Assembly: GCA_001604185.1 (NCBI GenBank)
Contig: LVAV01000113.1
Span: forward strand, 62,001 to 126,000
Source: Clostridiales bacterium Firm_16
Lineage (GTDB): Bacteria > Bacillota > Clostridia > Saccharofermentanales > Saccharofermentanaceae
Length of the DNA: 64,000 bases
Direction of reading: 5' to 3'
The notes beneath the pieces were generated by a model. The model ran no database searches. It saw only the letters and a program-made list of their open reading frames with translations, and was not told the DNA's origin. This document shows positions 1,485 to 53,640 of this stretch, in pieces (the stretch's first letter is position 1; each line of letters starts with the position of its first letter). The position numbers and the translations under genes are program-made.

Positions 1485-1559
1485 TGGCGCTCCGAGCAGG
1501 AATCGAACCCGCATTGGCAGTACCGGAAACTGCAGTCCTATCCGTTGAACGATCGAAGC
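1485..1559 (-). tRNA. tRNA-Arg (anticodon CCG)
   Basis: The minus strand folds into a full cloverleaf with encoded CCA: acceptor GCTTCGA/TCGGAGC, D stem GTTC/GGAC, anticodon stem GCAGT/ACTGC with loop TTCCGGT (anticodon CCG, reading CGG), T stem GCGGG/CCTGC with loop TTCGATT, discriminator G and then CCA at 1485-1487. The length is 75 nt including CCA. The variable loop is short (CAAT). It is a stand-alone gene with its own terminator downstream. Confidence 0.93.
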
Positions 1560-1650
1560 GTGTAGAAGTATTATAGCGATACTCTATGTGAAATTCAACA
1601 ACGATGACATATCGACCGGGGCGCGAACCCGCGGTGTTGTCGCCGCGAAC

Positions 1651-41678: not shown

Positions 41679-42629
41679 TTAGCTGAAGTAGATGATCTCG
41701 TTTTCCGGTTCATCCGTCAGGCGGTAGTGCTCGACCTGAAGACAGGGGATAGCCACAGGAGTGCCCTGGGAATCATCCCGGAAGAATCCGATCTTTCCGG
41801 TGACGGAAAGCCACTTTCCGGCAGGAAAACTGGGGCGGATCTTCAGAAGACAGAGGATGGAGATCATGCCGATATCGTTGGCGCAACAGGTATATGCTTT
41901 ACGCTGCAGAACGAAGGCTTCATCTCTATGCTCACGCATCAGTGTGGCCTGACCGGTGAGGGTGACGCGCTTACCGTTATAACGCTTCACGTTATCCAGT
42001 GCGTCGGTATAGAAAAGTCCGAAATCGTCCGGTGCGACGACGCAGGGAGACTGGGACAGATCGTAGGGGAGATAATCACCGATGTCGATCATGTTGCCGT
42101 CCATACTAAAGAAGGACAGGTTCATGGCGGGGTTCAGAGATTTGACTGAGCCACGCAGCTTCGGGATATTGTTGACCTCGGGATCCACACGGTTGAAGAT
42201 CACGTTGTCGCAGTAGCGGTAGTAGTCGGCAAAAATCGTCTGCATGTTGCGGTAGTAGTCGGAGTAGGTGGAGGCATCCACGATGGTGATGGCAGCAGCC
42301 AGCGCCCAGCGCTCCGGAACATCGACTTCGTCGAAAAAGGAAGCCGGAGATACGGAACCGTTCCACTCGATCAGTACGACATCCGGATGATACTCTTTCT
42401 CGAGCTTATAAGTGAAATCTTTGTTGATCTCTTCTGTTTCTGCAGAGACGACCTTCAGGGATTTGCAGGGCGCGCCCTTCTCCGGAGGGAACTCGACCTC
42501 GCCTTCCTCGGTCTGAAGGATCAGGACATTCTTACCCTGGAAACTTCCGTCTGCGAGCCAGGAGATAATAAAAGACGTTTTCCCGCTGTCGAGAAAACCT
42601 GTAAAGAAATATACAAGACAATCTTCCAT
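41679..42629 (-). CDS. CobW-type GTPase domain joined to a DUF1980-like C-terminal domain
   Basis: 316 residues. The N-terminal 190 residues resemble a COG0523 GTPase: P-loop FTGFLDSGKTSFI, VLIEWNGS, ITIVDASTY, IFNRVDP. The CxCC metal motif is missing; the equivalent region reads SAETEEINKDF. From about residue 195 it carries a small beta domain with RKAYTCCANDIGMISILC, very like the CCAAD motif of YcgQ/DUF1980 (TIGR03943) proteins, partners of YcgR-type permeases. This looks like a fusion of two families that usually occur as neighbours; a role in metal delivery is inferred. AAAGGTG precedes the ATG. Confidence 0.75.
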   Translation of the reverse strand: MEDCLVYFFTGFLDSGKTSFIISWLADGSFQGKNVLILQTEEGEVEFPPEKGAPCKSLKVVSAETEEINKDFTYKLEKEYHPDVVLIEWNGSVSPASFFDEVDVPERWALAAAITIVDASTYSDYYRNMQTIFADYYRYCDNVIFNRVDPEVNNIPKLRGSVKSLNPAMNLSFFSMDGNMIDIGDYLPYDLSQSPCVVAPDDFGLFYTDALDNVKRYNGKRVTLTGQATLMREHRDEAFVLQRKAYTCCANDIGMISILCLLKIRPSFPAGKWLSVTGKIGFFRDDSQGTPVAIPCLQVEHYRLTDEPENEIIYFS

Positions 42630-44796: not shown

Positions 44797-45222
44797 TCAG
44801 ACAGACAGATCAGATCCGAGTTTTTTGCAAGCGCGGATTGCCTCATCATCAGGGGCTTCGTTGCAGATAACGAAATCGGAAACGAGGTTCGCGCCGGCAG
44901 TTTTGCAGCGTTCTTCCCAAGATCTCATCCATTCTCCGTCGCCCCATCCGTAAGACCCGAAGAGTGCGATCTTCTTTCCGTTCAGAGAAGATTCGAGTTC
45001 AGAGAACATCGGTTCAAACTCGGATTCCTCCAGTTCCTCTGCACCCATAGCCGGGCATCCAAAGGCGACAGCGTCAAATTCGGAGAGTTTGTCGGAATTG
45101 AACTCGGATGACGTGAGGATAGAAGCCTCCGATCCTGCATCTGTGACGCCAATGGCGATGGCCTTTGCCATTTCCTCGGTGTTGCCTGTGCCGCTCCAGT
45201 AAACGATTGCGATTTTGCTCAT
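44797..45222 (-). CDS. Flavodoxin
   Basis: 141 residues, the standard length of short-chain clostridial flavodoxins. The phosphate loop is YWSGTGNTEEMA, the FMN-flanking loops are GCPAMGAEELEE and FGSYGWGDGEWM. Carries electrons in place of ferredoxin when iron is scarce. The ATG at 45222 has GAAAGGA upstream; the open frame reaches further but without family similarity. It lies 32 bases downstream of the DUF3793 gene in the same operon, under a promoter overlapped by a GTTAG-N6-CTAAC operator, which fits repression by a metal-sensing regulator. Confidence 0.95.
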   Translation of the reverse strand: MSKIAIVYWSGTGNTEEMAKAIAIGVTDAGSEASILTSSEFNSDKLSEFDAVAFGCPAMGAEELEESEFEPMFSELESSLNGKKIALFGSYGWGDGEWMRSWEERCKTAGANLVSDFVICNEAPDDEAIRACKKLGSDLSV

Positions 45223-45254: not shown

Positions 45255-45833
45255 TTACAGACCTGAAACGAGTAGTTGTTCCAGGGAACTGCCTTCTTTT
45301 AAACGCCTTAGATAGCAGGCGGTGCACTGCCTGTATCTTTTAAAGAGTTTTTCGGCCTTGTCGGGTTCCGAGTAGACTTTCCAGCATCCCTTGCATGCAA
45401 ACGCACAGTTCGGATTCCAGATGAAACCTTCCACGTCTTTGGGAGGATATCCCAGAAAAAGTCCAATCTCGTGAGGAAAAGAGCTTCCCTCACGAAGTCT
45501 ACTGCAGAGATGTAGGATGCAGTGTGTCGTATCAGAGGAACTATATCCGAATCTATTCAGGATCCTTGCCGCAAGAGGATCCTGAAGATCCTGCTTTAAG
45601 CAGTTCGGACGATACAGATACAGAAGCGCGAAGTCATCTGTTTTCTTAAGAGGGATGAGGAGAAGACCGGATGAACGGAACTTGCGGTTGAGGTCACATA
45701 TTTCTGAGATCAGACTGCAAGGAGAAAAACCTCGAAGGGAGAAGAGACTTCCTGTTTTTAGTCCGGCAAGTGTAGGAGCACACTGCTCAACGACACGTTT
45801 CTCAAGAAGTGAAATATGGTTTTTATTCTTCAC
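45255..45833 (-). CDS. DUF3793 family protein
   Basis: 192 residues from GTG 45833, which has GAGGAGGAG about 6 bases upstream. Conserved family features include the start LEKRVVEQCAPTLAGLKTGSLFS, LLYLYRP, LHLCSRLREGSSFPHEIGLFLGYPPKDVEGFI and a Cys-rich CAFACKGCWKVYS followed by CTACYLR. The four to six cysteines could bind a metal or cluster. In Clostridia this family is often next to flavodoxin and iron transport genes; function unknown. First gene of the operon with flavodoxin. Confidence 0.85.
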   Translation of the reverse strand: MKNKNHISLLEKRVVEQCAPTLAGLKTGSLFSLRGFSPCSLISEICDLNRKFRSSGLLLIPLKKTDDFALLYLYRPNCLKQDLQDPLAARILNRFGYSSSDTTHCILHLCSRLREGSSFPHEIGLFLGYPPKDVEGFIWNPNCAFACKGCWKVYSEPDKAEKLFKRYRQCTACYLRRLKEGSSLEQLLVSGL

Positions 45834-45872
45834 TGGTCTCCTCCTCGATTTATTAGACATGAACGGCTTGCG

Positions 45873-45888
45873 GTTAGCCACGGCTAAC
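45873..45888. promoter_or_regulatory. Operator 1, GTTAG-N6-CTAAC palindrome
   Basis: GTTAGCCACGGCTAAC, perfect 7-bp arms around AC. It abuts the -10 box of the DUF3793/flavodoxin promoter, a position suited to repression. Confidence 0.75.
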
Positions 45889-45915
45889 TATATCACGACA
45901 AAATGATAGTGTCAA
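45887..45915 (-). promoter_or_regulatory. Promoter of the DUF3793-flavodoxin operon
   Basis: On the minus strand perfect TTGACA (45915-45910), 17-bp spacer, TATAGT (45892-45887). Operator 1 overlaps its downstream edge. Confidence 0.8.
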
Positions 45916-45951
45916 GCAAGTCACGGAAGCTGAAATTTCAGGAAAATAAAA

Positions 45952-45967
45952 GTTAGCAAAAACTAAC
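45952..45967. promoter_or_regulatory. Operator 2, GTTAG-N6-CTAAC palindrome
   Basis: GTTAGCAAAAACTAAC, ending 9 bp upstream of the -35 box of the rightward promoter and 36 bp upstream of the leftward one. Confidence 0.7.
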
Positions 45968-45976
45968 TAAAAAGTG

Positions 45977-46005
45977 TTGACAGCGCAATTTTGCTCTGCT
46001 ACAAT
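45977..46005 (+). promoter_or_regulatory. Promoter for the phosphoglycerate mutase leader
   Basis: Perfect TTGACA (45977-45982), 17-bp spacer, TACAAT (46000-46005); start about 46012. It is bracketed by operators 2 and 3. Confidence 0.85.
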
Positions 46006-46013
46006 CTGTCATG

Positions 46014-46029
46014 GTTAGCGGATGCTAAC
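46014..46029. promoter_or_regulatory. Operator 3, GTTAG-N6-CTAAC palindrome
   Basis: GTTAGCGGATGCTAAC, flanked by matching G and C (18-bp palindrome), at about +3 to +18 of the rightward transcript. Confidence 0.75.
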
Positions 46030-46197
46030 CAGTTTGTGTTCCTTGATATTATACCTGACGAAGATGAGACATTGCATCTTTCCAACAGTGATGACCAACT
46101 CCCCTTTCTTAATGTTATCGGTGTGTGTCCCGTCTTCCTGCAAGCATCTTTATTGCTACCACTTTCATGCTTGCAACAGTATAAACAGGTATTGATC

Positions 46198-46234
46198 GAA
46201 GCGCCGCGGTTCAACGGGCTGCGGCGCTTCTTTT
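46198..46234 (+). terminator. Intrinsic terminator in the leader of the mutase gene
   Basis: GAAGCGCCGC (46198-46207) pairs perfectly with GCGGCGCTTC (46221-46230), followed by TTTT. It ends 21 bases before the start codon. Confidence 0.75.
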
Positions 46235-46255
46235 AAGGACGAAAGGAGATTACTT

Positions 46256-47002
46256 ATGATGAAACTTGTTTTGATCCGTCACGGTGAAAGTGAATGGAAT
46301 AAACTCAACCTCTTTACCGGATGGACAGATGTCGATCTAAGTGAAAAAGGAAGAGAAGAGGCAAGAAATGCAGGAAGAACCCTGAAGGCAGAAGGATATG
46401 ACTTTGACATCTGCTTTACTTCTTATCTTAAGCGTGCGATCCATACGTTGAATATCACGCTCGACGAGATGGATCGTGCCTGGCTTCCTGTCGAAAAGTC
46501 CTGGAAACTCAATGAACGTCACTACGGTGCGCTTCAGGGACTGAATAAGTCGGAGACTGCGGAGAAGTACGGTGAAGAGCAGGTCAAGATCTGGAGACGT
46601 TCTTTTGACGTCAAACCGCCGGAACTGGAAGTCTCTGATGAAAGATCCGCGATCCATCAGGCAATGTACAGGAATGTTGATGCGTCTTTGCTTCCCGCAC
46701 ATGAGAGCCTCGAGACAACGATCGAACGAGTAGTTCCTTACTTCGAGGAAGTAATCAAGCCTGAGATGAAGGCCGGAAAACGTGTCGTGATTGCGGCACA
46801 CGGTAATTCACTCCGTGCTCTGGTGAAGTACTTCGATAACTTAAGCAACGAAGAGATCATCGGGGTCAATATCCCGACAGCAGTTCCACTGGTCTACGAA
46901 TTCGATGATGATTTCAAAGTCATCCGGAGTTACTACCTCGGCGATCAGGAAGCACTGAAAGCGAAGATGGAAGCGGTCGCCAATCAGGGAAAGAAGAAAT
47001 GA
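46256..47002 (+). CDS. gpmA: 2,3-bisphosphoglycerate-dependent phosphoglycerate mutase
   Basis: 248 residues, typical for dPGM. The catalytic RHGESEWN with the phospho-His is at the start, [14 protein letters not shown] follows, then [14 protein letters not shown] and the second catalytic His in [13 protein letters not shown]. It interconverts 3- and 2-phosphoglycerate in glycolysis without a metal, in contrast to the manganese-dependent iPGM common in Clostridia. AAAGGAG lies 7 bases before the ATG. Its control region has operators 2 and 3 and a terminator in the leader, so expression seems tied to metal status; this fits a metal-sparing isoenzyme. Confidence 0.95.
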
Positions 47003-47125
47003 TCCGGTGACTGCATTTGAGACTGTGTATTTCTGGCATCCGGCTTTTCCGAAGTGATATCGGATCATCACGATACCAAGCCCTGGATCGCTGTACTTGC
47101 AAAGAAGTAAACATTTTAATTTGCG

Positions 47126-47141
47126 GTTAGCGATATCTAAC
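47126..47141. promoter_or_regulatory. Operator 4, GTTAG-N6-CTAAC palindrome
   Basis: GTTAGCGATATCTAAC, extended by CG on both sides (47124-47143). It lies 35 bp before the first ABC gene of the uptake operon. No strong promoter boxes were found around it. Confidence 0.72.
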
Positions 47142-47175
47142 CGATAAAACTACATAATCTAACGGAGGAGATTAT

Positions 47176-49002
47176 ATGAAAAAGAGAGGATTGTTTTCCT
47201 GGATCCTTGAGTTTGCGGGAAGAAAACGTACATTTTTCGGTGGCAGTGTCATGCTCGCCATCTTTGGTGTTGCAGCGTCTTTCGTTCCGTACCTCATTAT
47301 TTCGAAGATCGTTGAACAGCTTCTGGCCGGAAACGACGACTGGGATTTCTACCTCAAGCAGGTGCTTCTTATGGGCGTGTTCTGGGTCATCCGAATGACA
47401 CTGCATTCACTGTCGACATCGCTTTCTCACGTGGCAACATTTACAGTTCTTGGAGGAATCCGAACACAGCTTTGTGAGAAGCTTTCACGTATCCCGCTCG
47501 GATCGGTGCTCGATGACAACAGCGGAAGCTACAAGAACATCATCGTGGAGCGTGTCGACTCGATGGAGACGACGCTGGCGCATATCGTGCCGGAGTTTAC
47601 CGCGAACCTTCTGCTTCCGGTCGTGATGTTTATTTACCTTGTGACGATCGACTGGAGACTCGGTCTCAGCAACCTGATCGGTGCTGCGATCGGCCTCGTG
47701 TTCATGGCCGTCATGATGTATAAGAGCCGTGGCGGTTATGAACTGTCGGTACAGAAAACAAAGAAACTGAACGATACTGCTGTCGAGTACATCAACGGTA
47801 TCGAAGTCATCAAGGCATTCGGTAAGACCGGCGGTTCTTACGAAAAGTTCGTTGTCGCCGCAAGAGAGGGCGCGGATGTTTTCATCGACTGGATGAGAAG
47901 ATGTATCTGGCCGCAGTCGGGCACGATGTCCTTCCTGCCGGCGACTTTCCTGGGTGTGCTTCCGGTGGGACTTCTGCTGGTAAGAAACGGCACGCTGACA
48001 CCTGTTGATTTCATCACGGGCATCATCCTTTCCGCGGGCCTGATCACACCGCTGGTCGTTGCGTTCTCTTATACAGATGACCTTCTCAAGATGAAGACGA
48101 TCTTCGGAGAAGTTACGGAGATTCTCGAAAGGGACGACATGGAGAGACCTTCGGTCGTCAGAGAAACACCTTCGGGTTCCGATATCGAACTGAAAGATGT
48201 CCGCTTCACATACAAGGATCAGGAAGTCCTTCACGGAATCAATATGAAGATCAAGCAGGGCGAAGTGGCCGCGATCGTTGGTCCTTCCGGATCCGGCAAA
48301 AGCACTATCGCGAGACTGATCGATTCCCTGTGGGATGTGGATTCCGGCTCGATCACATATGGCGGTGTCGATATCCGGAAACTTCCGCTGACATACTATG
48401 CCGGGAAAATCGCGTACGTCGCACAGGATAACTATCTTTTCGATCTGTCGGTAAAAGAGAATATCCGTCTCGGCCGTGCGGGAGCTTCTGATGAAGATGT
48501 ATATAACGCGGCGAAAGCGACTGGGTGCCACGAGTTTATCCTTGGTCTGGAAAACGGATATGACACGATCGTCGGTGGTGCCGGCGGACATCTGTCCGGT
48601 GGTGAGCGTCAGAGGATCTGTATTGCCAGAGCGATGCTTAAAGACGCGCCGGTCGTTATCCTCGACGAAGCGACGGCCTATACCGACCCGGAAAATGAAG
48701 CGCTGGTACAGTCCAGTGTGGCCAAACTCGTAAAGGGAAGGACCCTGATCGTTATCGCGCACCGTCTCTCTACGATCGTCGACGCGGACAAGATATTTGT
48801 GATCAATGACGGAAACGTCGAGGCTGTCGGTACGCAGGAAGAACTCCTTGAAAACTGCGAACTTTATAAGAAGATGTGGGAAGCACACAGTATGGCGAAG
48901 GATGAAGACGAAGACGCAGTTGCGGAAGCAATCTCCGCAGTGAAAATGTCGGAGGTATCTGGTACGAGTGCTTTTACCAAGGAGGTGGCCGCACATGTTT
49001 AA
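47176..49002 (+). CDS. ABC transporter (exporter fold, IrtA/YbtP-like), subunit 1
   Basis: 608 residues: six-helix membrane domain (about 15-310) plus ATPase with Walker A GPSGSGKST, signature LSGGERQRICIARAM, Walker B VILDEATAYTDPENE and switch His IAHRLSTI. The DPENE ending of the D-loop is a feature I associate with IrtAB/YbtPQ-type siderophore importers, which have an exporter fold but import. A charged C-terminal tail of about 30 residues follows. ACGGAGGAG precedes the ATG. Operator 4 is immediately upstream. Import of a metal chelate or haem-like compound is inferred from context. Confidence 0.88.
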   Translation: MKKRGLFSWILEFAGRKRTFFGGSVMLAIFGVAASFVPYLIISKIVEQLLAGNDDWDFYLKQVLLMGVFWVIRMTLHSLSTSLSHVATFTVLGGIRTQLCEKLSRIPLGSVLDDNSGSYKNIIVERVDSMETTLAHIVPEFTANLLLPVVMFIYLVTIDWRLGLSNLIGAAIGLVFMAVMMYKSRGGYELSVQKTKKLNDTAVEYINGIEVIKAFGKTGGSYEKFVVAAREGADVFIDWMRRCIWPQSGTMSFLPATFLGVLPVGLLLVRNGTLTPVDFITGIILSAGLITPLVVAFSYTDDLLKMKTIFGEVTEILERDDMERPSVVRETPSGSDIELKDVRFTYKDQEVLHGINMKIKQGEVAAIVGPSGSGKSTIARLIDSLWDVDSGSITYGGVDIRKLPLTYYAGKIAYVAQDNYLFDLSVKENIRLGRAGASDEDVYNAAKATGCHEFILGLENGYDTIVGGAGGHLSGGERQRICIARAMLKDAPVVILDEATAYTDPENEALVQSSVAKLVKGRTLIVIAHRLSTIVDADKIFVINDGNVEAVGTQEELLENCELYKKMWEAHSMAKDEDEDAVAEAISAVKMSEVSGTSAFTKEVAAHV

Positions 49003-50731
49003 GATGGTACAGAAGTTCTTCGGATTCTGCAGCAGGAAGAACAGGAATAAATTCTATAAATCCGCAGCGCTTGGTGTCCTCGAGGCGATGTTCACGGCCA
49101 TGAGGATCCCGGCAGCATTCTTCGCGATCAAGGCGGTGCTTGCGGACGATGTTACTACGCAGTCGATCCTGATCGTTATCGGTCTGATGCTCGTCAGCAC
49201 TCTCGGAAAGATGGCCGTTAACCGTTTCTCCTCGATGCTTCAGACAGAAGCGGGTTACGATACCTGTGCGCTGAAAAGAATCGAGATCGGCGAACACTTG
49301 AGATATCTTCCGATGGGATACTTTAACGACACAAGTCTCGGTCACATCACATCGGTCGCGACCAACACCATGGAGCAGGTCGGAGATATCGCGACTCGCG
49401 CCATCATGATGGTCCTGCAGGGAAGTATCACGACCGTGGTCGTTATCCTTTTCATGTTTATCTTCGATTATCGGATCGGTCTGATTGCGATTCTCGGCCT
49501 CGGAATCTTCCTTCTGGTCAATCAGTGGACCAACCATTCTGTCGCTAAAGTTGCCGATGAGAAACTTGCATCTGACAAGGATATGGTCGGTGTCATTCTC
49601 GAATACATCCAGGGCATTTCCGAGATCCGGAATTACAACATTATCAGCCAGAACCAGTCCCGTCTGAATAAGGCGATCGACCGTAAAAAGAGGGCCGATA
49701 TCGCAGCGGAACTGGCAGCAATTCCTGCAGTAGGCGTGCAGATGCTGATCAGTAAACTGTCCGGTGTTGCGATCGCTGGCGCATCCCTCTGGTTCTACTT
49801 TGACGGAAGTATGGAACTTGAACACACGATCACGATGCTTCTGTGCTCCTTCATGATCTTCGAATCCATGGATCTGGCAGGTATCTATACGGCACTTCTA
49901 AAGGTCATCGGTAAGGGCGTGGACCTGGCCAACGAGATCCTCGAGACCGAGCAGATGGATATCGACGGAGAAGATATTAAACCGGAAAACAGAGACATCC
50001 ATCTGGAGCATGTTTCCTTCGCGTACGAGAACAGAAAGATCATTGACGATGTCACACTCGATATCAAGGAGAATACGACCACGGCGATCGTCGGACCTTC
50101 CGGTGGCGGTAAGACCACGATCACTTCTCTGATCGCACGTTTCTGGGATGTACAGGAAGGTGAAGTCACGATCGGCGGAAGAAACGTAAAGGACTACAGC
50201 TTCGACTCGCTGATGGAGCAGTTCAGTTTCGTGTTCCAGAGAGTATATCTCTTTGAGGATACGATCGCGAATAACATCCGTTTCGGACGTCCGGAGGCAT
50301 CGATGGAAGAAGTCATTGACGCGGCGAAGAAGGCTGCATGCCATGACTTCATCATGGAGCTTCCAGATGGATATGACACGGTTGTAGGCGAGGGCGGTGC
50401 GACACTGTCCGGAGGTGAGAAGCAGAGGATCGCGATTGCAAGAGCCATTATGAAAGACGCGCCGATCATCATCCTCGATGAGGCGACGGCGAATGTCGAT
50501 CCGGAAAATGAAAAAGAACTGACCCAGGCGATCGATAATCTCACGAAGCAGAAGACGATCATCATGATCGCGCACCGTTTAAAGACCGTAAGACACGCTG
50601 ACCAGATCATCGTGGTCGACAAGGGACGCATCGTGCAGAAGGGTAAGCATGATGATCTCGTCAATCAGGAAGGTATTTATAAGAACTTCATCACCGGAAG
50701 AAAACAGGCAGTCAGCTGGAAGATCGGCTGA
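48995..50731 (+). CDS. ABC transporter (exporter fold, IrtB/YbtQ-like), subunit 2
   Basis: 578 residues. Membrane domain about 1-300; ATPase with GPSGGGKTT, LSGGEKQRIAIARAI, ILDEATANVDPENE and IAHRLKTV, all intact, so both ATP sites of the heterodimer should work. ATG 48995 has AAGGAGG 9 bases upstream and overlaps the end of subunit 1 by 8 bases. Partner of subunit 1. Confidence 0.9.
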   Translation: MFKMVQKFFGFCSRKNRNKFYKSAALGVLEAMFTAMRIPAAFFAIKAVLADDVTTQSILIVIGLMLVSTLGKMAVNRFSSMLQTEAGYDTCALKRIEIGEHLRYLPMGYFNDTSLGHITSVATNTMEQVGDIATRAIMMVLQGSITTVVVILFMFIFDYRIGLIAILGLGIFLLVNQWTNHSVAKVADEKLASDKDMVGVILEYIQGISEIRNYNIISQNQSRLNKAIDRKKRADIAAELAAIPAVGVQMLISKLSGVAIAGASLWFYFDGSMELEHTITMLLCSFMIFESMDLAGIYTALLKVIGKGVDLANEILETEQMDIDGEDIKPENRDIHLEHVSFAYENRKIIDDVTLDIKENTTTAIVGPSGGGKTTITSLIARFWDVQEGEVTIGGRNVKDYSFDSLMEQFSFVFQRVYLFEDTIANNIRFGRPEASMEEVIDAAKKAACHDFIMELPDGYDTVVGEGGATLSGGEKQRIAIARAIMKDAPIIILDEATANVDPENEKELTQAIDNLTKQKTIIMIAHRLKTVRHADQIIVVDKGRIVQKGKHDDLVNQEGIYKNFITGRKQAVSWKIG

Positions 50732-50771
50732 ACAGTTAAGCAAAATGAAAATGTCCTCAGGAGGGGTATAT

Positions 50772-51368
50772 ATGAGTAACAGTAGTAACAAACTTCAGGC
50801 AAAAGACTTTATCACGATCGGTATATTTACCGCGCTTCTTTTCGTGGTAGAATTCGCATGCGGTATGCTCGGATTCATCCATCCGTACATCGTCGCGTCC
50901 TATGTGATCATGATCCCGCTCGTCGGCTCGGTCCCGATGATGCTTTTCTACACGAAGGTCGAGAAGTTCGGCATGATCTCTATCATGTCGGTCCTTATGG
51001 CGATCATCATGTTCGTCACAGGTATGGGCTATCTCGGAGCACCTCTCATTATCGCATCCGGTGTGATCGCAGATCTGATCGCGAAGTCCGGAAAATACAA
51101 GAGTGCTAAGAAGACCATATTCAGCCACGGTGTATTCTGTCTTTGGATCTGCGCGAATTATTTCCCGGTCGTTGTGACAGCGGATTCCTACAGACAGGAT
51201 CTGCTCGATGGCGGTTATTCCAAAGAATACTGCGATAACCTTTTCCGCGCGATCAACAGTCGTACGTTCGCCGTGCTTCTGATACTGTGCTTCGTATTCG
51301 GTCTGATCGGTGCTTTGATCGGAAAAGCAGTCGTTAAGAAACACTTCGAGAAAGCCGGTATTGTGTAA
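50772..51368 (+). CDS. ECF transporter substrate-binding (S) component, Trep_Strep/MptD-like
   Basis: 198 residues with about five to six membrane helices (for example TIGIFTALLFVVEFACGMLGFI, SVPMMLFY, MISIMSVLMAIIMFVTGMGYL, GAPLIIASGVIADLIAKSG and ILCFVFGLIGALIGKAVV). Length and the A/G-rich GYLGAPLIIASGVIADL segment match the Trep_Strep/MptD-type S components. It decides substrate specificity, which is not known for the family. AGGAGGGG precedes the ATG at 50772; the T gene overlaps its stop by one base. Confidence 0.82.
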   Translation: MSNSSNKLQAKDFITIGIFTALLFVVEFACGMLGFIHPYIVASYVIMIPLVGSVPMMLFYTKVEKFGMISIMSVLMAIIMFVTGMGYLGAPLIIASGVIADLIAKSGKYKSAKKTIFSHGVFCLWICANYFPVVVTADSYRQDLLDGGYSKEYCDNLFRAINSRTFAVLLILCFVFGLIGALIGKAVVKKHFEKAGIV

Positions 51369-52069
51369 TGCATATCCGACTTGATCCGAGAACCAAACTG
51401 TACATGATATTCGTGATCTCCGCGATCGTCATGATGAGCGCGACGACACCGTTTCTGTGGGGTGTCCGGATCCTGATGACCATGATCCCGATTGCTCTCC
51501 TTATTCTTGAGAAGCACTATGCCTCGGCATTCCGCTTCCTGATCCTGTATACTCTGGCACTGTACTTAAACTTCTCGTTCATTACATCAGAATCAACGGG
51601 ATTCCTCATGGCGTTTCTGGTCGGATACTGCAGCATCATCGTGCAGTTCATGCCGGCCGTGATCACTGCGTGGTATGTGGTCCGGACCACGAAGATCGGA
51701 GAGTTCGTGTCGGCGATGCAGAAGATGCACATCCCGGACGGGATCACGATCTCACTGGCTGTCGTGATGCGTTTCTTCCCGACGATCAAGGAAGAGTACA
51801 CGTCGATCCGTGACGCCATGAAGATGCGTGGTATCATGCTCGGTGGCGGAAATGCAGCGAAGATGGTGGAGTACAGGATGATCCCGCTTCTTTTCTCGTG
51901 CGTGAATATCGGAGATGAATTATCCGCGGCCGCCATAACACGTGGCCTCGGAGGAAAGGTGAAGAGAACCAGTGTGGAGACTTTGAAGTTACGGGCGCAG
52001 GACTGTTTCCTCGCGCTGTTCTTCACGGCAGCTGCCACTGTTTTCATAGTCTTCAAGTATTTTCTGTAA
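51368..52069 (+). CDS. ECF transporter transmembrane (T) component
   Basis: 233 residues, CbiQ/EcfT family: start IRLDPRTKLYMIFVIS, about five membrane helices, and two coupling motifs AMKMRG and AAITRG (the A-R-G signatures that dock on the ATPases). It overlaps both neighbours by a single base, so S, T and A are made together. Confidence 0.93.
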   Translation: MHIRLDPRTKLYMIFVISAIVMMSATTPFLWGVRILMTMIPIALLILEKHYASAFRFLILYTLALYLNFSFITSESTGFLMAFLVGYCSIIVQFMPAVITAWYVVRTTKIGEFVSAMQKMHIPDGITISLAVVMRFFPTIKEEYTSIRDAMKMRGIMLGGGNAAKMVEYRMIPLLFSCVNIGDELSAAAITRGLGGKVKRTSVETLKLRAQDCFLALFFTAAATVFIVFKYFL

Positions 52070-53640
52070 TGGAACCCTTAGTAGATATATGTAATGTCAC
52101 CCACAAGTATAAGGGTGCCGGGGAAGACTCGATCGAAGGTGTCTCTCTTTCCGTAACGAAAGGAGAGACGCTTCTTCTGTGTGGTGCGTCCGGTTCCGGA
52201 AAGACTTCCGTGATCCGCCTGATCAACGGACTTATCCCACATTACTACCATGGAGAGATGTCAGGCGATGTCTTCGTTAAAGGTCTGGACGTCGGAAAAA
52301 TCGAACTTCACGAGCTGGCAGGCATTGTCGGGACGGTGTTCCAGAACCCGAGAAGCCAGTTCTTTTCCGTCGATACCGATGGGGAGATCGTCTTCGGCCC
52401 GGAGAATATCGGCCTTGCTCCGGAGAAGATCCTCGACCGCAAGAATATGGTCGTGGATCAGATGGATCTGGAAAAACTTCTGGGTAGAAGCCTGTTCGAA
52501 CTGTCGGGTGGCGAGAAGCAGAGGATCGCCTGCGCGTCCGTCGCGGCACTTCTTCCGGAGATCATCCTGCTCGATGAACCTTCCTCGAATCTGGATTTTG
52601 AGGCGATCGCGAAACTCCATGAGATCATCCGCGAATGGAAGGAACAGGGTAAGACGATCATCATATCTGAGCACCGTCTGTGGTATCTCAAGGACCTGGT
52701 CGACCGCGTCATCTATATGGACAACGGGAAGATCTCTCACGAATGGACGAGAGAAGAATTCTCCGCTCTCTCTGAGTCCGAGACAAAAGCACTGAAACTT
52801 CGCCCGACGGAGGTGGGAGAGCATTTCTCGAAGCTCTTTATGGAAGAAGAAAAAAACACAGATCCTGCATCGGGAAAATTTCGCGTCGGAAGAAGTGCTT
52901 TTCCCGAAGAACGAACCGCAGCACAACCAGCTTCAAGAGACGGGATCAAACTGAAGGATTTTTATTTCTCTTATCAGCATAAGCCCTATATTCTGTGGAA
53001 ACAGAAGTTTACGGAAGCAGACGGGGATTCCTTAAGTTTATGCATCCCGGAACTGGTGCTTCCCAAGGGTAAAGTAATCGCAGTGGTTGGAAGAAACGGC
53101 ACAGGTAAGTCCACGTTCCTCCGCTGTGTCTGTGGCCTCGAGAAGGATTGCTCCGGAACGATCGAAATCGATGGAAAGACGTATCGAGGAAAGCAGCGCA
53201 TCAGGGTTTCCTATATGGTCATGCAGGATGTGAATCATCAGCTTTTCACCGATAGTGTTGTGTCAGAAGTGATGCTCTCCATGAAAGAAAAAGATGAGCG
53301 CAGATGCCAGGAGATACTTGACACTCTCGGACTTTCCACTTATAAGGACACTCACCCGATGGCACTGTCAGGCGGTCAGAAACAACGTGTTGCGATTGCC
53401 TCGGCCATTGCGGCGGAAGCACAGATCCTGCTTTTTGACGAACCGACATCCGGTCTGGATTTTGCACATATGGAGAAAGTAGGGGTACTTCTGCGAAGAC
53501 TTGCGGCTTCAGGGAAAACCGTACTGGTCAGTACACACGATCCGGAACTGATCGAGCAGTGCTGCGATTACGAACTTTACATCCGAAAAGGAAGAGTCGT
53601 CTCGCTCGAAAGCTGCCGTCAAATCGAAACCCTAAGATAA
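52069..53640 (+). CDS. ECF transporter ATPase with two fused ATP-binding domains
   Basis: 523 residues. Domain 1 (about 5-250): Walker A CGASGSGKTS, signature LSGGEKQRIACAS, Walker B IILLDEPSSNLD. Domain 2 (about 290-523): VGRNGTGKST, LSGGQKQRVAIAS, ILLFDEPTSGLD. One chain supplies both EcfA and EcfA' functions. With the S and T genes this makes a complete dedicated (group I) ECF importer, in the same operon as the IrtAB/YbtPQ-like pair. Confidence 0.93.
   Translation: MEPLVDICNVTHKYKGAGEDSIEGVSLSVTKGETLLLCGASGSGKTSVIRLINGLIPHYYHGEMSGDVFVKGLDVGKIELHELAGIVGTVFQNPRSQFFSVDTDGEIVFGPENIGLAPEKILDRKNMVVDQMDLEKLLGRSLFELSGGEKQRIACASVAALLPEIILLDEPSSNLDFEAIAKLHEIIREWKEQGKTIIISEHRLWYLKDLVDRVIYMDNGKISHEWTREEFSALSESETKALKLRPTEVGEHFSKLFMEEEKNTDPASGKFRVGRSAFPEERTAAQPASRDGIKLKDFYFSYQHKPYILWKQKFTEADGDSLSLCIPELVLPKGKVIAVVGRNGTGKSTFLRCVCGLEKDCSGTIEIDGKTYRGKQRIRVSYMVMQDVNHQLFTDSVVSEVMLSMKEKDERRCQEILDTLGLSTYKDTHPMALSGGQKQRVAIASAIAAEAQILLFDEPTSGLDFAHMEKVGVLLRRLAASGKTVLVSTHDPELIEQCCDYELYIRKGRVVSLESCRQIETLR

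What the first reader, a model, noticed from the sequence alone, without database searches (positions are those of the whole stretch)
45255..53640. A compact regulon marked by GTTAG-N6-CTAAC palindromes, joining flavodoxin, dPGM, DUF3793 and two transport systems
Four 16-bp copies (45873-45888, 45952-45967, 46014-46029, 47126-47141) occur in the control regions of three adjacent transcription units and, as far as I saw, nowhere else in the window. Three of them touch or flank textbook promoters. Half-sites resemble DtxR/IdeR/MntR boxes but the spacing is unusual (5-6-5). Flavodoxin (iron sparing), metal-independent phosphoglycerate mutase, and IrtAB/YbtPQ-like plus ECF importers all make sense as genes switched on in metal limitation.
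Basis: partly seen in the sequence, partly recalled or inferred. Interest (0 to 1): 0.8.

Follow-up and report, generated by a model that had tools for sequence, protein, structure and literature searches.

The report
Clostridial iron regulon with new sRNA
The repeated palindromes mark an iron-saving gene set found in many Clostridia, probably switched by a short DtxR-type repressor instead of the usual Fur protein, and one of them starts a small regulatory RNA that we found nowhere described.

Summary
In detail: four exact GTTAG-N6-CTAAC sites, 0.02 expected; 14 in the genome, 2 for a control pattern. Other sites precede feoA-feoA-feoB, a FeoB-associated protein, a second DUF3793-flavodoxin operon and ABC transporters: probably an iron regulon. 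The spacing is not unusual: the 19-bp DtxR box is two overlapping TTAG-N6-CTAA sites. Sites lie within 500 bp upstream of DUF3793 in 63 of 80 loci. The likely regulator is a short DtxR relative without an SH3 domain: its homologues have their own site at 21 of 35 places, and strong matches occur in 17 of 19 site-rich but 2 of 34 chosen site-free genomes; strong Fur matches run the other way (2 of 19, 27 of 34). It is found in 15 of 23 genus genomes, with covarying helices and an unpaired C-rich stretch; I read it as an iron-sparing sRNA. Its targets were not found. All evidence is computational; iron response and binding are inferred.

The parts
44797..45222 (-). flavodoxin gene, second gene of the DUF3793 operon
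   Evidence: PF00258 E 9e-19; TIGR01753 above cut-off; also next to DUF3793 in kin
45255..45833 (-). DUF3793 gene (function unknown; 192 aa)
   Evidence: PF12672 E 7e-55; AlphaFold2 model pLDDT 87.5, no PDB fold match at E<=0.001
45873..45888 (.). operator site 1, over the -10/start of the DUF3793 promoter
45887..45915 (-). promoter of DUF3793-flavodoxin, TTGACA-17-TATAGT
45952..45967 (.). operator site 2, between the divergent promoters, 9 bp upstream of the sRNA -35
45977..46005 (+). promoter of the small RNA, TTGACA-17-TACAAT
46012..46235 (+). putative small RNA, about 220 nt (start and end predicted, not measured)
   Evidence: family search; folding z -5.8; covariation; no SD-led small ORF in 18 copies
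46014..46029 (.). operator site 3; in the RNA it would form the 5' terminal hairpin
46098..46105 (+). conserved unpaired C-rich stretch ACTCCCCT of the small RNA
   Evidence: invariant columns in 13 sequences; unpaired in predicted ensembles
46198..46230 (+). intrinsic terminator stem of the small RNA, followed by TTTT
46256..47002 (+). dPGM gene, directly after the terminator; membership by read-through possible
   Evidence: NF010713 above cut-off
47126..47141 (.). operator site 4, 34 bp before the ABC-ECF operon
47176..49002 (+). ABC half-transporter; nearest solved half-size relatives YbtP and IrtA
48995..50731 (+). ABC half-transporter, partner of the former; its solved half-size relatives listed are exporters such as Sav1866 and MsbA
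50772..51368 (+). ECF S component, Trep_Strep/MptD family
51368..52069 (+). ECF T component (CbiQ)
52069..53640 (+). ECF double ATPase

Best explanation
GTTAG-N6-CTAAC is the single-dimer operator of a short DtxR-family repressor (own copy on contig C32, L020 1300-1674 -) that binds when iron is plentiful and blocks promoters of iron uptake and iron-sparing genes. When iron is short it lets go. FeoAB, siderophore-type ABC importers, flavodoxin and DUF3793 are made, and from the promoter at 45977-46005 a ~220-nt RNA whose first nucleotides are the operator itself folded as a hairpin. The RNA's unpaired ACUCCCCU most likely pairs with Shine-Dalgarno sequences of mRNAs and lowers their translation, as FsrA and IsrR do. 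dPGM is probably co-expressed at a low level by read-through. Shown: sites, their distribution, the gene contexts, the regulator's linkage and co-occurrence, and the conserved RNA sequence. Inferred: binding, iron as the effector, transcription, and base pairing with targets.
For: Sites. Contexts: feoA-feoA-feoB, FeoB_associated PF12669 with the site exactly in the 17-bp spacer TTGACA/TATACT, second DUF3793-flavodoxin operon, ABC operons. Sites within 500 bp upstream of DUF3793 in 63 of 80 loci, 102 sites in 38.7 kb against 67 in 818 kb of the rest; only spacing 6 counts (101, against 5 for all other spacings from 0 to 12). Regulator: DtxR-family homologues with a site within 450 bp upstream at 21 of 35 places, 12 of 22 when only the 80 DUF3793 loci are counted; strong matches (E<1e-40) in 17 of 19 site-rich and 2 of 34 site-free genomes, Fisher p 8e-10; Fur at E<=2e-34 in 2 of 19 and 27 of 34. 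Metal site: DACRIEH aligns with DtxR EACRWEH, not with MntR NDVEGIEH. RNA: 18 copies in 15 of 23 genus genomes; 17 of 42 pairs with changes on both sides, 0 of 500 shuffles as high; C-rich stretch more unpaired than the RNA's mean in 15 of 15 sequences folded, by a small margin in one (L034, 0.43 against 0.37); terminator in the consensus of 13.
Against: No binding, transcription or iron data. 17 of 80 DUF3793 loci have no site within 500 bp; two of these have only 13 and 75 bp of upstream DNA. Over 196 class genomes the pattern total is only 486 against 374 for the control; the signal lies in 19 genomes with at least 6 sites and 3 times the control, against 5 the other way round. G209 has 11 sites but no DtxR match. 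8 of 23 genus genomes gave no sRNA match. A review passage says SH3-less DtxR relatives reported so far do not respond to Fe2+ in vivo (PMC7762939); the best NCBIfam hits of the regulator are MntR models, below cut-off. The own copy has Asn where DtxR has Met and MntR Asp. The own DtxR gene has no site in the 3.2 kb fetched around it. sRNA targets were not found: 0 of 2 non-self AAGGGGAGTT places lies at a ribosome site, and ranking 681 ORFs gave no class of iron proteins.
Confidence: 0.7

Rival explanations
1. The regulator is right but the metal is manganese (MntR-like); the genes respond to Mn, which would also explain the metal-independent dPGM.
For: Best NCBIfam models for the own protein are MntR (83 and 60 bits, cut-offs 153 and 138); short SH3-less architecture as in MntR; best PDB hit of the profile is MntR.
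Against: Targets are FeoA, FeoB, FeoB-associated protein and flavodoxin, the classical iron set; MntR's Glu (NDVEGIEH) is Cys here (DACRIEH) as in DtxR; I saw no Nramp or Mn-type ABC gene among those beside the genome's 14 sites.
Confidence: 0.15
2. The + strand transcript is not an sRNA but the 5' leader (attenuator or riboswitch) of dPGM.
For: In the window dPGM starts 25 bp after the terminator stem and in its nearest relative dPGM also follows directly.
Against: dPGM follows directly in only 2 of 18 copies; leaving out ORFs that overlap the RNA, the next ORF of at least 90 aa is on the other strand in 12 of 18; no Rfam match reached its gathering score.
Confidence: 0.1
3. Another regulator (Fur-, MarR- or Rrf2-type) reads the palindrome; the DtxR gene is only a regulated neighbour.
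For: Site-linked genes need not be the regulator; the genome also has two Fur-family genes; G209 has sites without a DtxR match.
Against: The two Fur genes sit beside rubrerythrin (PerR-like) and in a zinc-type ABC-3 operon (Zur-like); strong Fur matches are anti-correlated with sites; the half-site TTAG and the N6 spacing match the DtxR box. MarR and Rrf2 families were not tested for co-occurrence.
Confidence: 0.15

Closest known systems
DtxR/IdeR regulon of high-GC Gram-positives (box TTAGGTTAGCCTAACCTAA)
   Same: Half-site TTAG, spacing TTAG-N6-CTAA, Cys-x-x-Glu-His metal motif, iron uptake targets, operator over the promoter
   Different: Regulator lacks the SH3 domain, the operator is a single-dimer site, hosts are Clostridia, and it seems to stand in for Fur
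MntR (Bacillus subtilis, E. coli)
   Same: Short two-domain DtxR-family protein
   Different: Cys instead of Glu in the metal motif; iron rather than manganese genes at the sites
IsrR (Staphylococcus) and FsrA (Bacillus): iron-sparing sRNAs
   Same: Metal-repressor sites at the promoter, genus-level conservation, own terminator, unpaired C-rich stretch fit for Shine-Dalgarno pairing (IsrR paper PMC9410917, passages)
   Different: Not found by Rfam models of known sRNAs at gathering score; DtxR-type instead of Fur site; the operator is the 5' hairpin; targets unknown
MrsI (Mycobacterium), recalled as an IdeR-controlled iron-sparing sRNA
   Same: sRNA under a DtxR/IdeR-type repressor
   Different: Actinobacterial; no relation tested. 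Only a search listing seen

Membership tests
DtxR/IdeR family (regulator) | N-terminal Fe_dep_repress and C-terminal Fe_dep_repr_C domains | tested here: met
   PF01325 36 bits (cut-off 26) and PF02742 51 bits (cut-off 27) for L020
DtxR/IdeR family (regulator) | Cys-x-x-Glu-His metal site of iron-type members | tested here: met
   DACRIEH aligned with EACRWEH of DtxR; the role of the residues is recalled
DtxR/IdeR family (regulator) | C-terminal SH3-like domain | tested here: not met
   Own protein 124 aa; the uncut site-linked ones 122-158 aa, DtxR chains about 226; so not an IdeR in the strict sense
DtxR/IdeR family (regulator) | Fe2+-dependent DNA binding | not testable with these tools
   needs purified protein
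DtxR box | TTAG-N6-CTAA spacing | tested here: met
   101 sites at spacing 6, 5 at all other spacings 0-12; consensus in PMC7762939 (passage)
DtxR box | 19-bp double-dimer box | tested here: not met
   Flanks of 169 sites: R before the 16-mer in 154, Y after it in 154, no strong preference further out; a consensus-level test
Iron-sparing base-pairing sRNA (functional class) | Discrete non-coding transcript with own promoter and terminator | tested here: inconclusive
   Predicted; no RNA data
Iron-sparing base-pairing sRNA (functional class) | Unpaired conserved C-rich or seed region | tested here: met
   Conservation; predicted unpaired
Iron-sparing base-pairing sRNA (functional class) | Targets among mRNAs of iron proteins | tested here: inconclusive
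   None found; about a fifth of the genome ranked
Known Rfam families | Score above a family's gathering threshold | tested here: not met

The most novel reading that the evidence does not exclude
In a broad, scattered part of the class Clostridia a short SH3-less DtxR protein has taken over from Fur as the iron master regulator, with GTTAG-N6-CTAAC as its box and DUF3793 as a very constant target; in one genus it also controls an iron-sparing sRNA born at the operator, so that the same 16 bp serve as repressor site in DNA and as 5' hairpin in RNA. A differently built operator-led stretch in a sister genus (L165, L168) hints that such RNAs arise repeatedly at this box.
Probability: 0.5. Interest if true: 0.75.

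Novelty: new variant of a known kind. Interest (0 to 1): 0.62.

Why it matters
Iron control in low-GC Gram-positives is usually told through Fur. A short DtxR that replaces it in many gut and rumen Clostridia would fill a gap for organisms that are mostly uncultured, would contradict the review's remark that reported SH3-less members do not respond to iron in vivo, and would give DUF3793 (one unrelated paper in the library, listing only) a physiological home. The sRNA would be a new iron-sparing RNA in a group where my searches listed none.

Tried and rejected
Rfam gave nothing at gathering threshold. sRNA targets: exact AAGGGGAGTT in the genome gave 4 places, 2 of them the sRNA copies themselves and 2 inside genes. 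AAGGGGA near a start codon gave 94 places against 52 control; only the first 30 were fetched and looked at, without an iron-protein pattern. Ranking 681 crude ORFs from 0.8 Mb by pairing energy gave a mixed list. The duplex energies look too strong and are not used. The sRNA model finds only the own genome among 391 class genomes, a sample that lists no other member of the genus; so the RNA looks genus-level. Four weak hits in sister genus g5 (E 0.03-0.1): two (L166, L167) lie in or against coding ORFs, two (L165, L168) are a different operator-led stretch. A reading that dPGM is simply the middle gene of the regulon was dropped. Contamination of the genome (5.4%) was considered for the second copy: stretches of contigs C110, C54, C113, C13 and C32 have GC 0.48-0.51 and tetranucleotide correlations 0.96-0.99, and two other genomes also have two copies. 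DUF3793 fold search: no match at E<=0.001.

Literature searched. None of the listings describes this motif, this regulator's regulon or this RNA. Read as passages only: PMC9410917, PMC7762939. RegPrecise could not be consulted, so the motif may be recorded there.

Full report
Observation. The genome has 14 such places against 2 for the reversed pattern. With GTTAGC-N4-GCTAAC and one mismatch there are 16 against 7, which adds a third site before feoA (C54:156302) and one between an ABC operon and a TetR gene (C110:40517); C110:200248 was not followed.

What the sites head. Besides the window: feoA-feoA-feoB (L017; Pfam FeoA, FeoA, FeoB), a 56-aa FeoB_associated membrane protein whose site fills the 17-bp spacer of TTGACA/TATACT (L019), a second DUF3793-flavodoxin operon with a second small RNA (L015), four ABC half-transporter genes in a row (L015/L016, with Pfam run on the first only), a MacB-type ABC pair (L015; Pfam on the permease) and another MacB-like ABC unit (L018; by sequence look only). 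The 14 exact places lie upstream of or between such units. FeoAB plus flavodoxin points to iron; the metal is an inference.

Spacing. The DtxR consensus TTAGGTTAGCCTAACCTAA (PMC7762939, passage) holds TTAG at 1-4 with CTAA at 11-14, and TTAG at 6-9 with CTAA at 16-19: TTAG-N6-CTAA twice, offset 5 bp, which fits the two dimers on opposite faces described in that review. The finding's motif is one of these halves. In the 500 bp upstream of DUF3793 in 80 loci, spacing 6 occurs 101 times and all other spacings from 0 to 12 together 5 times, all five at spacing 10.

Spread. 63 of 80 have a site within 500 bp upstream; 61 of the 76 with a full 500 bp. Over 196 genomes of the class (the own genome included) the total is modest, 486 against 374 control; 65 have none; 19 genomes have at least 6 sites and 3 times the control, 5 the reverse.

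Regulator. Genes next to sites in the fetched loci fall into DUF3793, DtxR-family, ABC half-transporter, FeoB, FeoA, DUF2325, methyltransferase and minor clusters (names by sequence look, Pfam only for a few). A tblastn search (E<=1e-5, so paralogues may be among them) found DtxR-family homologues at 35 places in 110 loci; 21 have a site within 450 bp upstream, 12 of 22 in the DUF3793 loci and 9 of 13 in loci that were fetched because of a site. Six of the loci are near-identical relatives, so these are not independent. In genus kin L041, L042 and L044 the gene follows DUF3793 and flavodoxin on the same strand, 161-182 bp after flavodoxin; in L040 it lies 2.2 kb further on; L051 and the window show none. 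A profile of 12 such proteins matched at E<1e-40 in 17 of 19 site-rich genomes and 2 of 34 site-free ones (Fisher p 8e-10); at E<=1e-30 it is 17 and 6, at E<=2e-30 18 and 6. Fur (PF01475) at E<=2e-34 was in 2 of 19 and 27 of 34 (p 1.4e-6). The 19 are all that met the rule above; the 34 were picked by hand from the 65 site-free genomes among the more complete ones, not all such. Thresholds were chosen after seeing the lists, kinship was not corrected for, and the own genome is in the profile. The two site-free genomes with a strong DtxR match (G153, G188) also lack a strong Fur. G209 has sites but no DtxR match. The own genome's two Fur-family genes lie beside a rubrerythrin and in an ABC-3 operon, as PerR and Zur would. 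The DtxR protein lacks the SH3 domain; its DACRIEH aligns with DtxR EACRWEH and MntR NDVEGIEH. That Cys goes with iron and Glu with manganese is recalled. At the position of DtxR Met10 / MntR Asp8 (numbering recalled) seven of the 12 rows have Met, the four genus kin Asp and the own protein Asn.

The small RNA. Downstream of TTGACA-17-TACAAT (45977-46005) follow site 3, about 170 nt and a terminator (stem 46198-46230). BLAST found it in 11 of 115 family genomes; a covariance model of 13 sequences found 18 clear copies (E<1e-12) in 15 of 23 genus genomes, two copies in three of them, and none in 8 (stricter filters). In 391 class genomes only the own one matched at E<=0.01; that sample lists no other genus member. 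DUF3793 lies next to 14 of the 18 copies within the fetched DNA. There are two subtypes (alignments A4, A5); shared are the operator hairpin, TAGTTTGTGTTC (with a small variant in some), the long-range AUACCU/AGGUAU helix, ACUCCCCU and the terminator. For subtype B, 17 of 42 pairs change on both sides and no shuffle of 500 reaches the covariation score; slid controls pair 37-49% of cells against 91%. The terminator helix carries 8 of the 17; the operator helix hardly varies, as expected of a DNA site. The C-rich stretch is predicted unpaired at 0.43-0.99, against 0.37-0.46 for the whole RNAs (15 sequences). None of the 18 copies has a Shine-Dalgarno-led ORF of 15 codons or more; leaving out ORFs that overlap the RNA, the next ORF of at least 90 aa is on the opposite strand in 12 of 18. 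dPGM is directly downstream in 2; in one of these, L158, the crude ORF list hides it and it is seen. So the RNA looks like an independent non-coding gene, not a dPGM leader.

How it probably works. Iron-loaded DtxR sits on the -10/start region of the DUF3793 and sRNA promoters (sites at about -8 to +7 and +2 to +17). Low iron frees them. FsrA and IsrR act by C-rich stretches on ribosome-binding sites (PMC9410917, passages); the same is inferred here. Targets were not found, and this is the weakest link.

dPGM. Its only visible promoter is that of the RNA, so read-through is the simplest route. In genome G100 a dPGM gene lies behind an HMA-like gene (24.4 bits, cut-off 24.8) headed by two sites, so its link with the regulon recurs.

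DUF3793. Constant partner of the sites; model pLDDT 87.5; no solved fold at E<=0.001 (best 0.042, TM 0.23). Function remains unknown; that it helps the sRNA is a guess without evidence.

Verdict. A real, widely spread operator with an iron-type gene set and a probable short DtxR regulator, plus an sRNA family that I found nowhere described. A new variant of known kinds.

Noticed in passing
window 47003-47110: Remnant of a SAM methyltransferase gene between dPGM and the ABC operon, in two frames; a longer relative lies behind dPGM in L158 and a shortened one in L015 at 18369.
   Followed up: partly
L165 1501-1720; L168 (minus strand): In sister genus g5 an operator-led stretch of about 215 nt with a terminator-like end lies between a nitroreductase-like gene and an NfnA-like gene (names by sequence look); different sequence, same layout.
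   Followed up: partly
L030 about 1500-1590 (minus strand): A stretch with the C-rich motif and GCTACCACTTTC but no operator, 100 kb from that genome's full sRNA copy (L161); perhaps a decayed or rewired copy.
   Followed up: no
L015 12772-14392: ABC operon divergent from a TetR gene with a one-mismatch operator between them (C110:40517).
   Followed up: no
L054 and one further locus: An enolase-like gene is the called gene downstream of a site (cluster of 2), another glycolytic gene beside dPGM.
   Followed up: no
L162: The gene convergent to the sRNA looks like an Rrf2-type regulator by sequence.
   Followed up: no
window 41679-42629: CobW-family GTPase with a DUF1980_C domain on the far side of the GGDEF-EAL gene, without a GTTAG site.
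   Followed up: no
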